In this document: in pieces, positions 14,924 to 18,460 of the stretch
Position numbering within the stretch: position 1 is the stretch's first letter
How the letters are laid out: each line of letters opens with the position of its first letter
From: Mycolicibacterium tusciae JS617
GTDB taxonomy: Bacteria; Actinomycetota; Actinomycetes; Mycobacteriales; Mycobacteriaceae
Direction of reading: 5' to 3'
Length of the DNA: 64,000 bases
NCBI RefSeq assembly: GCF_000243415.2
Contig: NZ_KI912270.1
Span: 4,340,001-4,404,000, forward strand
Program-made: the position numbers and the translations under genes
The notes under the pieces: generated by a model
What the model was told of the DNA's origin: nothing
Databases searched by the model: none
Seen by the model: only the letters and a program-made list of their open reading frames with translations

Positions 14924-16138
14924 CTAGGGCTCCAGAATCAGCACCGTGACGTCCGGCGGAGCCCCGATCCGGACCGGCGGACCCCAAAACCCCGCACCGC
15001 GGGTGACGTACAGCTGGGTGTCGTCGACGGTCGACAGGCCCGCCAACGATGGCTGCACCATCGTGACGACGTAGTGGAACGGCCACATCTGCCCGCCGTG
15101 CGTGTGGCCGGACAGCTGCAGATCCACCCCGCGTGCGGCGGCCTCGGAGACCAGCACCGGTTGATGGGCGAGCAGGACCGTCGGACGCGACAGGTTGACC
15201 CCCGCCAGGGCGCGGTCGAAGTCCGGGGGGTCGTCGCGTTGCGCGCCTGCGATGTCGTTGACGCCGACGAGATCGAACGCCGCGCCGCCGCGCCGGATCG
15301 CCGTGTTCTCGTTGCGCAGCGGCTGGACGCCCAGCCGCTCCAGTTCGGTCAGCCACGCGGCGGTGTCGTCGACGAAGTACTCGTGGTTGCCGGTGACGAA
15401 GAACGTTCCCTCGGGGGCGGACAGGTCCCGTAACGGTGCGGCCGCCGCGCCGAGCTGCTCGACGGTGCCGTCCACCAGATCGCCCACGATCGCCACCAGG
15501 TCCGGCTCCGCGGCATTGATGGTGTTGACGATCTGCTCGGTGTGCGCCCGTCCGGCCAATGGCCCGAGATGGATGTCGGACACCACGGCGATGCGGAATC
15601 CGCGCAGGGCCGGGTCCAGCCGGCGCAGGCGCACCGGGACCTGGAGGAGATCGGGCGGGCCGAGTGCGGTCGCGGCGCCGATCCCGACCAGGCCGACCGA
15701 CGCGGCCCCGGCGGCGACCGCAGTGGTCCGCGCGATGAACATCCGGCGGTTCAGCGCCGGCCGCGCACTTTCGGCAGTGGCGGACGATTCTTGCGGTTGA
15801 CCCTTGATCCAGGGGCGCAGTGCAAGCCGCACCGGCTCTGCGACGAGCAGTGTCAGGAACAGGTAGACGAGCAGGCCGAACCACAGGTAACCCGGCCACG
15901 CGTACCAGCCCGACCTGGGTACATCGACGAAACGCGGCACCACGAGCGTCGCGACTAGCAACAGCGCGAGCGCGACGAGCACCGCGGTGAGAATCCGCCT
16001 CGTTCGCCCCGGCCCGGTGGTGTCCTTGACCAGCCGCTTCCACAGGTAGAGGTTCATCAGCGCCAGCACCGCGCTGAGCGCAACGATGAACATTCCCGCC
16101 AGCCTAGGCAGCGCTGCTAGATCGTCTCGCAGAGACAA
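14924..16138 (-). CDS. Membrane-anchored calcineurin-like metallophosphoesterase
   Basis: About 404 residues. Three or four membrane helices at the N-terminus (residues about 14-32, 47-68, 80-104) are followed by a twin-arginine-like RRMFIARTTAVAAG segment and the catalytic domain. All metal motifs are present: SDIHLGP, GDLVDG, GNHEYF, LAHQP and SGHTHGGQMWP. This is the YkuE-like group, so the enzyme should sit on the outside of the membrane, acting on phospholipid head groups or similar esters. Start is TTG at 16138; ATG at 16093 would leave a shorter first helix. A paralogue lies at 57385-58608. Confidence 0.9.
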   Translation of the reverse strand: MSLRDDLAALPRLAGMFIVALSAVLALMNLYLWKRLVKDTTGPGRTRRILTAVLVALALLLVATLVVPRFVDVPRSGWYAWPGYLWFGLLVYLFLTLLVAEPVRLALRPWIKGQPQESSATAESARPALNRRMFIARTTAVAAGAASVGLVGIGAATALGPPDLLQVPVRLRRLDPALRGFRIAVVSDIHLGPLAGRAHTEQIVNTINAAEPDLVAIVGDLVDGTVEQLGAAAAPLRDLSAPEGTFFVTGNHEYFVDDTAAWLTELERLGVQPLRNENTAIRRGGAAFDLVGVNDIAGAQRDDPPDFDRALAGVNLSRPTVLLAHQPVLVSEAAARGVDLQLSGHTHGGQMWPFHYVVTMVQPSLAGLSTVDDTQLYVTRGAGFWGPPVRIGAPPDVTVLILEP

Positions 16139-16142
16139 GAAT

Positions 16143-16165
16143 GGAAGGGTCCGCGGATCCCTTCC
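16143..16165. promoter_or_regulatory. Near-perfect palindrome at the metallophosphoesterase start
   Basis: GGAAGGG (16143-16149) and CCCTTCC (16159-16165) flank TCCGCGGA, itself a palindrome, plus one unpaired T. It lies between the divergent metallophosphoesterase and helR genes, right next to the metallophosphoesterase start and about 10 bp upstream of the helR -10. It may be an operator for either gene or a leader hairpin. Confidence 0.35.
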
Positions 16166-16175
16166 ACTTCCAACG

Positions 16176-16208
16176 TATAACGCACATGGGGGCTTGCGGC
16201 AAGGCCCC
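16176..16208 (+). promoter_or_regulatory. helR promoter with rifamycin-associated element (RAE)
   Basis: A -10 box TATAAC (16176-16181) is followed after 7 bp by a 20-bp imperfect inverted repeat at 16189-16208 with arms GGGGCTTGC and CAAGGCCCC around GG. As I recall it, this equals the published RAE motif found upstream of rifamycin resistance genes in actinomycetes, including helR. The element would sit at or just after the transcription start. No good -35 is visible. Downstream, GCCTA...TAGGC (16230-16244) could form a small hairpin before the GTG start. Confidence 0.75.
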
Positions 16209-16261
16209 GGTCATGCCGCACAATCGTCCGCCTAGGCTTTAGGCACCGATTTTGGGGGCAT

Positions 16262-18460
16262 GTGTCAACTCAGGACTACGACGACGAGCTCCGCTCCGAG
16301 CAGGGTTACGTCGACGGGCTGTACACGCGACTGGACGCTGAACGTGCGCGTGTGAGGGCCCGATACCGCGCTGCGCTCGGGGCCGACGTCGACCGCATGG
16401 ACGGCGGCACGCTCGTGGCCCGCGACAGCGAGGTGCGCGCGCTGGCGAAGCAGGCCGCACGGCTGGACGTCGCCGACGACGGGCTCTGCTTCGGCCGGCT
16501 GGACAGCGTCACCGGCCACCGGTCATACATCGGGCGGATCGGCATTCTCGACAAGGACAACGAATACGATCCGCTGCTGCTCGATTGGCGGGCGCCCGCG
16601 GCTCGCGCGTTCTATGTCGCGACCGCTGCGACACCGGAGAACATGCGTCTGCGCCGCCAGTTCCATACGCGCGGCCGACGGATCGTCGACTTCACCGACG
16701 AGGTCCTCGGCCGCCCCACCGGTGATGAACGCGGGGACGACGCACTGCTGGCCGCCGTCAATGCGCCGCGCGGGGAGGGCATGCGCGACATCGTCGCGAC
16801 GATCCAGGCCGAGCAGGACGAGATCATCCGGCTCGAGCATCCCGGAGTGCTGGTGATCGAGGGCGGGCCCGGCACAGGCAAGACCGTGGTGGCGCTGCAC
16901 CGCGTCGCATACCTGCTCTATACGCAGCGCAAGCGGATCGAACGCCACGGCGTTCTGGTGATCGGTCCCAACCCGGCGTTTTTGAACCACATCGCTCGCG
17001 TGCTGCCGTCGCTGGGCGAGTCCGACGTCGTGTTCATGACCGTCGGAGACCTCGTGCCCGGTCTGCGCGTCACCGCCGAGGACGCCGACGAGACCGCACG
17101 AATCAAGGGATCGTCGAAGATGCTCGACGTGCTCGCGGCTGCGATCGCGGATCGCCAACGGCTGCCCAATGATCCGCTGCCGATCGAACTGGCGGACGTC
17201 ACGGTGCGCATCGACGCGGAAACCGCCCAGTGGGCCCGCGAGGAGGCACACGCGAGCGGTAAGCCACACAACGAGGCGCGCGCGGTTTTCACCGAGATCA
17301 TCACCTACGTCCTCACCGAGCGGGCGATAGCACGCATCGGCAAGGGCTGGCTGACCCGCGACGACCGCAACGCATGGGAACAGCTGCGGACGAACCTGAT
17401 CGACGAGCTTTCCGACAATGCAGTGTTCACCGCCGCGCTCGACGCGCTTTGGCCGATGCTGACACCGCAGGCGCTGCTGGCCGAGTTGTACTCCTCGCCA
17501 GAACGGCTACGCACCGCACAGGCCGACGAGGTGCTGTATCGGGCCGAAGGCGATTCCTGGACCGTCTCGGATGTCCCGTTGCTCGACGAACTCGTCGACC
17601 TACTGGGTCGTGACAACGTGGCCGACGCCGCCGCCGAGCGGGAGCGCAAGGCGGAGACCGCGTTCGCGGCCGGGGTGCTGGACAACATGATCAGCCGCGA
17701 GGACCTGATGGACGACGAAGACCATCTGCTCGCACAGGACATGCTGTACGCCGAGGATCTGGCGGAGCGGTTCACCGAGCGCGACACCCGAGAGCTCGTC
17801 GAACGCGCGGCCGCAGACCGGGATTGGACGTACCGGCACGTTGTCGTCGACGAGGCTCAGGAACTGTCCGAGATGGACTGGCGGGTGCTGATGCGGCGCT
17901 GCCCGAGCCGGTCGTTCACCGTGGTCGGTGATCTGGCCCAGCGTCGATCCGCGGCCGGGGCGACGTCCTGGGACGCGATGCTCGAGCCGTATGTGCCCGG
18001 CCGGTGGATCTACCGGTCACTGTCGGTGAACTACCGCACGCCTGCGGAGATCATGACCGTCGCCGCGGCGCTGCTCGCGGAGTTCGCGCCCGACATTCGC
18101 CCGCCGGATTCGGTGCGCGCGTGCGGTGTGATGCCGTGGTCGCGTCAGGTCACCGATGACGAATTGCCGATGGCCATAGGGGAATTCGTCGATGGGGAAG
18201 CACAGCGAGAAGGCACCAGCGTGGTCATCGGGCCGCCGGATGTCCCCGGTGCGGTGCCGCCGTCGGAGACGAAGGGCCTCGAGTTCGACGCCGTCCTGGT
18301 GGTCGATCCGGACCGGATCCTCGCCGCCGGGCCGCGCGGCGCCGCCGAGTTGTACGTCGCGCTGACCCGTGCCACCCAACGGCTGGGAGTTCTCCATCGC
18401 GCTCCCCTGCCGCGGGCACTGAGTGGACTCGCCGGATCCCGAGACGCGCTCGCGAAATAG
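16262..18460 (+). CDS. helR: HelD/HelR-type RNA polymerase recycling ATPase
   Basis: A 732-residue UvrD/SF1-like protein of the HelD family. The N-terminal coiled-coil arm (ELRSEQGYVDGLYTRLDAER) enters the RNAP secondary channel in known structures; then YIGRIGI and DWRAP (1A side), Q-motif IQAEQ, Walker A GGPGTGKT (201-208), Walker B VVDEAQE (about 527-533), and C-terminal ETKGLEFDAVLVVDP and YVALTRATQRL. HelD proteins dislodge stalled RNAP; the HelR group displaces rifamycin and gives tolerance. The RAE upstream supports HelR rather than general HelD. GTG start with TTGGGGG just before it. HelR versus housekeeping HelD still needs phylogeny. Confidence 0.88.
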   Translation: MSTQDYDDELRSEQGYVDGLYTRLDAERARVRARYRAALGADVDRMDGGTLVARDSEVRALAKQAARLDVADDGLCFGRLDSVTGHRSYIGRIGILDKDNEYDPLLLDWRAPAARAFYVATAATPENMRLRRQFHTRGRRIVDFTDEVLGRPTGDERGDDALLAAVNAPRGEGMRDIVATIQAEQDEIIRLEHPGVLVIEGGPGTGKTVVALHRVAYLLYTQRKRIERHGVLVIGPNPAFLNHIARVLPSLGESDVVFMTVGDLVPGLRVTAEDADETARIKGSSKMLDVLAAAIADRQRLPNDPLPIELADVTVRIDAETAQWAREEAHASGKPHNEARAVFTEIITYVLTERAIARIGKGWLTRDDRNAWEQLRTNLIDELSDNAVFTAALDALWPMLTPQALLAELYSSPERLRTAQADEVLYRAEGDSWTVSDVPLLDELVDLLGRDNVADAAAERERKAETAFAAGVLDNMISREDLMDDEDHLLAQDMLYAEDLAERFTERDTRELVERAAADRDWTYRHVVVDEAQELSEMDWRVLMRRCPSRSFTVVGDLAQRRSAAGATSWDAMLEPYVPGRWIYRSLSVNYRTPAEIMTVAAALLAEFAPDIRPPDSVRACGVMPWSRQVTDDELPMAIGEFVDGEAQREGTSVVIGPPDVPGAVPPSETKGLEFDAVLVVDPDRILAAGPRGAAELYVALTRATQRLGVLHRAPLPRALSGLAGSRDALAK

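What the first reader, a model, noticed from the sequence alone, without database searches (positions are those of the whole stretch)
16176..18460. helR with a rifamycin-associated element at its transcription start
The gene is a HelD-family RNAP-recycling ATPase, and a 20-bp inverted element at 16189-16208 (arms GGGGCTTGC and CAAGGCCCC) just after a TATAAC -10 box equals, as I recall, the rifamycin-associated element of actinomycete resistance genes. Together they predict a rifamycin-inducible tolerance locus. The element lies at or downstream of the start site, which would fit control by RNAP stalling or a leader mechanism rather than an ordinary upstream activator. A small hairpin (16230-16244) follows.
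Basis: partly seen in the sequence, partly recalled or inferred. Interest (0 to 1): 0.8.

Follow-up and report, generated by a model that had tools for sequence, protein, structure and literature searches.

The report
Two-way promoter before rifamycin-protection gene helR
The gene is a known kind of RNA-polymerase rescue protein under a known rifamycin-response element, but comparison with relatives suggests that this element is really the shared middle of two promoters pointing in opposite directions, which makes the unsolved question of how these bacteria sense rifamycins directly testable.

Summary
Confirmed: a HelD/HelR RNA-polymerase-recycling ATPase (16262-18460) stands behind a rifamycin-associated-element (RAE) palindrome (16189-16207). 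Both are known kinds.

New, from 234 distinct RAE sites: on both sides, at mirrored distances, lies a -10-like motif: sense CANAAT-like (A27 and T31 in 230/234) and antisense TANNNT (225/234). Of 80 helR loci fetched by protein, 46 have palindrome and flanks and 33 neither. The antisense motif persists whichever way the upstream gene runs. I infer that the palindrome carries the overlapping -35s of two back-to-back promoters with equal 19-nt spacers, the antisense one nearer to consensus.

A caution: the left motif can also be read as a weak sense -10 (YANNNT in 215/234), so its direction rests on its first base and on the -35 spacing.

The conserved sense start is predicted near 16231, beyond the RAE; an RNA-leader mechanism has little support. 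How rifamycin tips the balance (polymerase alone, or an unknown palindrome-binding protein) is open. No transcript data were available.

The parts
16189..16207 (.). RAE palindrome GGGGCTTGCGGCAAGGCCC (19 bp, centre 16198)
   Evidence: 234 distinct sites compared
16194..16199 (+). inferred sense -35, TTGCGG, inside the RAE
   Evidence: most frequent form at this place, 172 of 234; TTG itself was required by the search pattern
16219..16224 (+). inferred sense -10, CACAAT, 19 nt after the sense -35
   Evidence: A27 and T31 in 230 of 234 sites, 117 of 120 non-redundant
16230..16234 (+). predicted sense transcription start region (about 31-nt leader)
   Evidence: inference from the -10 position; leader length from 16231
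16197..16202 (-). inferred antisense -35, TTGCCG on the minus strand, overlapping the sense -35
   Evidence: 172 of 234; TTG itself was required by the search pattern
16172..16177 (-). inferred antisense -10, TACGTT on the minus strand, 19 nt after the antisense -35
   Evidence: TANNNT at this offset in 225 of 234, 111 of 120 non-redundant, next offset 3 of 120
16165..16165 (-). predicted antisense transcription start (G on the minus strand)
   Evidence: inference from the -10 position; plus-strand C in 97% at this column
16176..16181 (+).
16142..16166 (.). inverted repeat TGGAAGGG / CCCTTCCA at the 5' end of the predicted antisense transcript; only weakly shared by relatives
   Evidence: fold of 16105-16165 minus strand z -1.77; small excess of pairing at centres -38.5 and -40.5
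16262..18460 (+). helR/helD, class II RNA-polymerase-recycling ATPase, 732 aa
14924..16138 (-). divergent neighbour, metallophosphoesterase (TTG start of the longest ORF at 16138); could receive the antisense transcript here

Best explanation
helR encodes a HelD/HelR protein expected to pull rifamycin-blocked RNA polymerase off DNA. Its control region is a composite of roughly 80 bp, not just the 19-bp RAE. The two arms of the RAE palindrome supply the -35 elements of two housekeeping-sigma promoters that point away from each other, each with a 19-nt spacer to its -10 (sense CACAAT, antisense TACGTT). As the -35s overlap, only one polymerase can engage at a time. The antisense promoter has the more canonical elements, so without drug it should capture polymerase and hold the sense promoter low. 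Rifamycin shifts the balance to the sense promoter. Shown by sequence: the mirrored, co-inherited motifs. Inferred: that both are active promoters, that they compete, and that competition is the off state. Not known: the step by which the drug tips the balance, either polymerase alone or a protein bound to the palindrome.
For: 234 distinct sites: antisense TANNNT at one exact offset in 225 and sense A27/T31 in 230, before two sites were turned, no other offset reached 15 for antisense TANNNT or sense YANNNT. Left and right halves, each scored alone, give the same orientation in 232 of 234. The non-redundant set of 120 gives 111 and 117. Protein-fetched helR loci: palindrome and flanks both present 46, neither 33, palindrome only 1, of 80. 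The antisense -10 is kept in 124 of 130 sites with a co-directional upstream gene and 101 of 104 with a divergent one (rough gene call). Antisense is closer to consensus: first -10 base T in 229 of 234 against C in 218 of 234 for sense; -35 TTGCCG in 172 of 234. A natural remnant, L065, has lost the antisense -10 and the antisense TTG arm together while keeping TTGCGG and CAAAAT (one case). The review PMC10719064 reports that mapped promoter P2 of M. smegmatis helD has its -35 in the RAE and that deleting the upstream RAE half abolishes induction.
Against: No transcript ends or expression data were available. The left motif also reads as YANNNT on the sense strand in 215 of 234, so by the lenient rule used for the sense -10 its direction is ambiguous. 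The TTG of both -35s was part of the search pattern and is no independent evidence in the 234 sites. With any first base, sense ANNNT also occurs at +29 in 24 of 120. A polymerase stalled by rifamycin on the antisense promoter should also block the shared -35, so competition alone does not explain induction; in the B. subtilis system a 17-bp shortening that brings the promoters into steric conflict abolished induction. Beyond the core the palindrome is conserved where not asked for (columns -3, -2, 12, 13 at 98-100%; -4 91%, 14 77%), which -35 recognition does not explain and which looks like a protein site. A whole-column mirror test did not peak at the palindrome centre; only the -10 landmarks mirror. 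The consensus scan found no promoter, but it allows 16-18 nt spacers only. Five bidirectional promoters tested in E. coli showed too little basal activity for competition (abstract of PMC12825309).
Confidence: 0.47

Rival explanations
1. The palindrome is the operator of a dedicated, still unknown rifamycin-responsive transcription factor. It covers the -35 of the sense promoter (repressor, or activator that replaces or remodels the -35), and the left motif is an accessory or a second promoter that the same dimer controls symmetrically.
For: 19-bp palindrome conserved beyond the core, with a slight excess of complementary letters further out at -6/+16 (50 of 120, 36 expected). The two papers consulted on this point treat the factor as unknown. 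SoxR, a MerR-type factor on a bidirectional promoter with a 19-bp spacer in one direction, steers polymerase to one orientation (PMC12825309 section 19).
Against: No regulator among the five gene clusters that make up 215 of 232 called downstream ORFs; the 17 others were, but for one transporter, not annotated. The palindrome is centred about 33 bp upstream of the predicted sense start, which is unusual for an ordinary activator. It does not by itself explain the conserved antisense TANNNT.
Confidence: 0.32
2. The left motif is a sense promoter (read as CANNNT at 16171-16176, or TATAAC) in tandem with P2; rifamycin relieves interference of the first promoter with the second, as described for mycobacterial rpoBC.
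For: ANNNT reads as a possible -10 on both strands, and the left motif is YANNNT on the sense strand in 215 of 234. P1 and P2 are reported for M. smegmatis helD; the rpoBC precedent (PMC6181997 passages).
Against: No conserved -35 or extended -10 on the sense strand to the left. With T as first base the sense reading holds in 46 of 234, the antisense one in 225. The reported P1 start, about 20 bp upstream of the RAE, does not fit this motif: in the M. smegmatis-like locus it would fit TACCCT (-36 to -31), whose second-base A is found in 3% of 234 sites.
Confidence: 0.14
3. The left motif is simply the promoter of the divergent upstream gene.
For: In this window a metallophosphoesterase gene diverges with its start at 16138, about 27 nt from the predicted antisense start.
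Against: The motif is kept in 124 of 130 sites where the upstream gene runs the other way.
Confidence: 0.03
4. The RAE acts as RNA: a hairpin in a leader transcript that senses stalled polymerase.
For: A transcript of 16186-16262 folds somewhat better than shuffles (z -1.92, 7 of 200 shuffles as good).
Against: The free pair -1/+11 is complementary in 62 of 234 against 52 expected (6 of 1000 shuffles as high) and in 26 of 120 non-redundant sites against 21, a weak excess; no clear covariation near the start site; no Rfam match; the predicted sense start lies beyond the RAE.
Confidence: 0.04

Closest known systems
HelR/HelD class II (M. abscessus MAB_3189c, S. venezuelae SVEN_6029, M. smegmatis MSMEG_2174)
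   Same: Full-length match to the NCBIfam HelD_MYCSM and motor_HelR_2 models; 75% identical to M. smegmatis HelD of PDB 6YXU with the ED tip of the primary-channel loop; RAE upstream.
   Different: Nothing notable seen in the protein.
Rifamycin-associated element (RAE)
   Same: 19-bp palindrome upstream of rifamycin-resistance genes: helR, rox, arr, rph, rgt.
   Different: Described in the passages read as a 19-bp palindrome that overlaps the -35 of P2. Here it is found embedded, in nearly every site compared, in a symmetric pair of -10-like motifs, one of them read as antisense.
B. subtilis helD/pps dual-promoter rifampicin alarm (PMC12802891)
   Same: A sense and an antisense promoter upstream of helD, the antisense the stronger (there measured; here inferred from consensus).
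   Different: There the promoters converge with starts 39 bp apart and collide; here they are inferred to diverge and share their -35 region.
Bidirectional promoters and PsoxS/soxR (PMC12825309)
   Same: Pseudo-symmetric promoter that can engage polymerase in two orientations; 19-bp spacer in the soxS direction.
   Different: Here both spacers are 19 nt and the symmetry centre is a palindrome at the shared -35; no regulator known.
Mycobacterial rpoBC promoters I and II (PMC6181997)
   Same: Two promoters whose balance rifampicin changes. Promoter II has the motif CGCTATNGTT; the antisense strand here reads CGCTATANGTT in consensus, one base longer.
   Different: Tandem, not divergent.

Membership tests
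HelD/HelR class II | Full-length match above the curated family cut-off | tested here: met
   HelD_MYCSM 1419 bits (cut-off 1051), motor_HelR_2 1386 (1100); motor_HelR of the other branch 476, below its 750
HelD/HelR class II | Primary-channel loop with acidic tip (Glu484-Asp485 of M. smegmatis HelD) | tested here: met
   ED aligned in the window protein; role of the tip from PMC10719064 passages
HelD/HelR class II | Removes rifamycin or stalled polymerase and protects the cell | not testable with these tools
   needs biochemistry
RAE | 19-bp palindrome upstream of a rifamycin-resistance gene | tested here: met
   exact in the window; also before arr and before an rgt-like gene in the own genome
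RAE | Letters equal to the published RAE | not tested
   recalled; of the original papers one was asked for and is not held, the others were not asked for
RAE | Confers induction by rifamycin | not testable with these tools
   reported in PMC10719064; needs expression data here
B. subtilis-type convergent dual-promoter alarm | Two convergent promoters | tested here: not met
   by consensus only: inward TANNNT at most 46 of 234 on the left and below 10 on the right; the left motif as inward YANNNT 215 of 234, the right motif as inward has G first in 200 of 234; no outer -35 conserved
Bidirectional promoter | Two promoters in opposite directions sharing core sequence | tested here: inconclusive
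   sequence arrangement found; transcription in both directions not tested

The most novel reading that the evidence does not exclude
The RAE is not a transcription-factor site at all: the symmetric promoter pair is itself the rifamycin sensor, and RNA polymerase, the drug's target, chooses an orientation according to its drug-bound state, switching on arr, rox, rgt, rph and helR across Actinomycetes without any dedicated regulator.
Probability: 0.18. Interest if true: 0.9.

Novelty: new variant of a known kind. Interest (0 to 1): 0.6.

Why it matters
How RAE genes sense rifamycins is described as unresolved in a January 2026 paper (PMC12802891 passages). If the RAE is the shared -35 of two opposing promoters, the question becomes concrete: one antisense start to look for, a competition to measure in vitro, and a clear test of polymerase-only against regulator. 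It would also tie the actinobacterial element to the B. subtilis two-promoter alarm, as a possible convergent solution with a different geometry.

Tried and rejected
RNA leader or hairpin: disfavoured for lack of clear covariation, an ordinary fold at 16230-16262 and no Rfam match; the longer stretch 16186-16262 folds somewhat better than shuffles. Convergent-promoter reading: disfavoured because canonical -10 elements read outwards and no outer -35 is conserved. Antisense motif as the neighbour's promoter: rejected. HelR versus housekeeping HelD as separate groups: not supported; in the tree RAE-positive and RAE-negative genes are interleaved. Chance: flank-only scoring with the palindrome ignored gives 72.8 at this site and at most -9.6 elsewhere on both strands of the window. 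Whole-column mirror symmetry: tested, negative; only the -10 landmarks mirror. Generic sigma-70 scan: no hit, but its spacers stop at 18 nt. Search for a regulator gene directly downstream of RAEs: none among the five main clusters. Not done: structure prediction (a solved structure at 75% identity exists) and presence/absence profiling of candidate regulators.

Limits of the counts: the genomes searched for the palindrome (118, 200, 345, 61 and 246) overlap. The 237 loci gave 234 distinct sites; duplicates and sites too close to a contig end were dropped, not counted apart. All 234 were chosen by the exact pattern GGGNCTTGNNGCAAGNCCC, so columns inside it are biased; the flanks are not. The 80 helR loci were chosen by protein, as the best 80 of at least 569 places. 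In one search the 33 loci with neither feature include L065, a remnant with a composite score of 28.3. Two sites (L300, L321) were turned by hand, which changed 224 to 225 and 231 to 230. Gene names of the RAE clusters rest on one or two members each: both arr members and the rox member's best family (an unnamed FAD-protein subfamily) pass their cut-offs, but the rifampin-monooxygenase, Rph, HelR and Rgt models score below theirs; three of these ORFs are cut by the locus end, the Rgt one is not. Seventeen of 232 ORFs fell outside the five clusters; many look like wrong-frame ORFs, one begins like rox, one is a DHA2 transporter. In one search, at 3 mismatches, the tool's reversed-pattern control also hit this genome 4 times, so the rgt site there rests on its exact fit to the 19-bp pattern and on its flanks (score 77.5).

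Full report
What the window holds. The ORF at 16262-18460 (732 aa, GTG start) is a HelD/HelR RNA-polymerase-recycling ATPase. It passes the NCBIfam cut-offs for HelD_MYCSM and motor_HelR_2, matches PDB 6YXU, M. smegmatis HelD, over nearly its whole length, is 75% identical to it and keeps the acidic ED loop tip. The window lies in a 7.3-Mb genome. The palindrome GGGGCTTGCGGCAAGGCCCC is at 16189-16208. With up to 3 mismatches the genome has three such places: before helR (exact), before arr (1 mismatch) and before an rgt-like glycosyltransferase gene on the minus strand (3 mismatches). At 3 mismatches the reversed control pattern also hits (4 times), but the third site fits the 19-bp pattern exactly and has the full flanks (77.5). 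That this palindrome is the published RAE rests on recollection of its letters and, by test, on the genes it precedes.

Known background. PMC10719064 (section 9 read; passages) says that two promoters were mapped for M. [quoted passage not shown] PMC12802891 (abstract, sections 48-49 and passages) describes a convergent two-promoter rifampicin alarm in B. subtilis and calls the RAE mechanism unresolved. PMC8655204 (passages) maps RAEs to two HelR sub-branches. Recalled or cited through these, and not read: Spanogiannopoulos 2014, Surette 2022, Hurst-Hess 2022 (not held).

Comparison. The samples overlap. A hundred further regions were taken by place. The 237 loci gave 234 distinct sites.

Result. 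Counting C of CTTG as 0 (window 16193), the columns outside the palindrome with the highest information are A27 (99%), T-17 (98%), T31 (98%), A-16 (97%), A-21 (96%) and A29 (96%). For these figures the left side was oriented by the right half only and the right side by the left half only; the two orientations agree in 232 of 234. Read outwards, the columns are -10 elements: antisense TANNNT at -16 to -21 (225 of 234) and sense CANAAT-like at +26 to +31 (A27 and T31 in 230; with first base C or T 218) (before two sites were turned 224, 231 and 219). In one search no other offset had 15 or more of antisense TANNNT or sense YANNNT. Their midpoints, (31-21)/2 and (27-17)/2, equal 5, the palindrome centre. 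From TTGCGG (+1 to +6) and TTGCCG (+9 to +4 on the other strand) both spacers are 19 nt; the TTGs themselves were required by the search. In 120 non-redundant sites (below 80% identity) the counts are 111 and 117. Several exceptions are shifts of about one base (list).

Direction of the left motif. ANNNT is its own reverse complement, so the left motif can also be read as a sense -10: YANNNT in 215 of 234, TANNNT in 46. I prefer the antisense reading because its first base is the canonical T in 229 of 234, a TTG lies 19 nt away as on the other side, and no -35 or extended -10 is conserved to the left. This is an argument from consensus, not a demonstration.

Controls. (1) The 80 helR loci chosen by protein and scored with a matrix made from the other 234 sites: palindrome and flanks both present in 46, neither in 33, palindrome alone in 1 (L088). 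One of the 33, L065, is a remnant: it keeps TTGCGG and CAAAAT, but has lost both the antisense -10 and the antisense TTG arm. L088 has lost the antisense -10 and keeps the sense ACAAT. (2) With the palindrome ignored, the flanks score 72.8 here and at most -9.6 elsewhere on either strand of the window. (3) The upstream gene is co-directional in 130 sites and divergent in 104 by a rough coding call; the antisense -10 is kept in 124 and 101. So it is not merely a neighbour's promoter. (4) All gene classes show it: non-redundant sites with both elements are helR 41 of 42, rox 26 of 29, arr 19 of 20, rgt 8 of 9, rph 4 of 5, other 12 of 15. (5) Against the idea: whole-column mirror similarity does not peak at the palindrome centre, so only the landmarks mirror; and with any first base, sense ANNNT is found at +29 in 24 of 120 as well.

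Asymmetry. The antisense promoter looks the stronger: its -10 begins with T in 229 of 234, while the sense -10 begins with C in 218. The one free base of the palindrome core makes the antisense -35 TTGCCG in 172 of 234 and TTGCGG in 39; TTGCCG is closer to TTGACA. The antisense strand reads CGCTATANGTT in consensus; a motif CGCTATNGTT is named for the strong rpoBC promoter II (PMC6181997 passages), one base shorter, so this is a likeness only.

Regulon. Of 232 sites with a called downstream ORF, 89 cluster with helR, 62 with rox, 26 with arr, 23 with rph and 15 with rgt (one or two members of each named by family models, several below the curated cut-offs). One further ORF is a DHA2 transporter (L197). 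No regulator is among these; the other 16 ORFs were not annotated.

Mechanism. Best reading: two back-to-back promoters share the RAE as overlapping -35s, with the antisense one dominant at rest. What is shown is sequence architecture and co-inheritance. That both fire, compete and set the off state is inferred. The drug step is unknown. A difficulty is that a polymerase arrested on the antisense promoter would also occlude the sense one, and in B. subtilis a 17-bp shortening that brought the promoters into steric conflict ended induction. The palindrome is conserved beyond its core even where that was not asked for (columns -3, -2, 12 and 13 at 98-100%, -4 at 91%, 14 at 77%), which argues for a bound protein. 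SoxR on PsoxS/soxR shows how a factor can steer polymerase to one orientation of a bidirectional promoter with a 19-bp spacer. I therefore leave polymerase-only sensing at 0.18 and a dedicated factor as the main rival.

The published P1. In G077, whose HelD is 96% identical to that of M. smegmatis, a TACCCT lies at -36 to -31, which would fit a start about 20 bp upstream of the RAE. The A it needs is present in 3% of the 234 sites (column -35), so P1 does not seem to belong to the conserved element. This is inference; I did not see the TSS table.

Novelty. In the held library (10 searches) I found no description of an antisense promoter in the RAE or of the composite; these searches show listings, and I read parts of eight papers. 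One search (bidirectional promoter with rifamycin) gave two papers whose titles and abstract openings concern other subjects. Subscription papers are mostly missing, so it may be in print elsewhere. The helR gene and its RAE are a new member of a known kind; the composite is what is offered as new.

Noticed in passing
L004:227-1455 (own genome, G000:C4 about 1500894-1502122): The rgt-like rifamycin glycosyltransferase behind the third RAE reads in two frames (pieces match Rgt profile 1-185 and 141-404), so it looks frameshifted although its RAE composite is intact.
   Followed up: partly
L197:1-1233 minus: A DHA2-family efflux transporter lies behind an RAE-type element, outside the five usual rifamycin-resistance families.
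   Followed up: partly
L321 and L319 (a family outside the window's class): Two sites from elsewhere in the phylum keep the composite with a different palindrome centre, suggesting an old element.
   Followed up: partly
window 16142-16166: Inverted repeat TGGAAGGG/CCCTTCCA at the predicted 5' end of the antisense transcript; relatives conserve the CCTTCC half better than the pairing.
   Followed up: partly
L065 and L088, upstream of helR: Two eroded elements that kept the sense -10 and lost the antisense -10; in L065 the antisense TTG arm is gone too. The other 32 element-less loci of the 80 were not studied further.
   Followed up: partly
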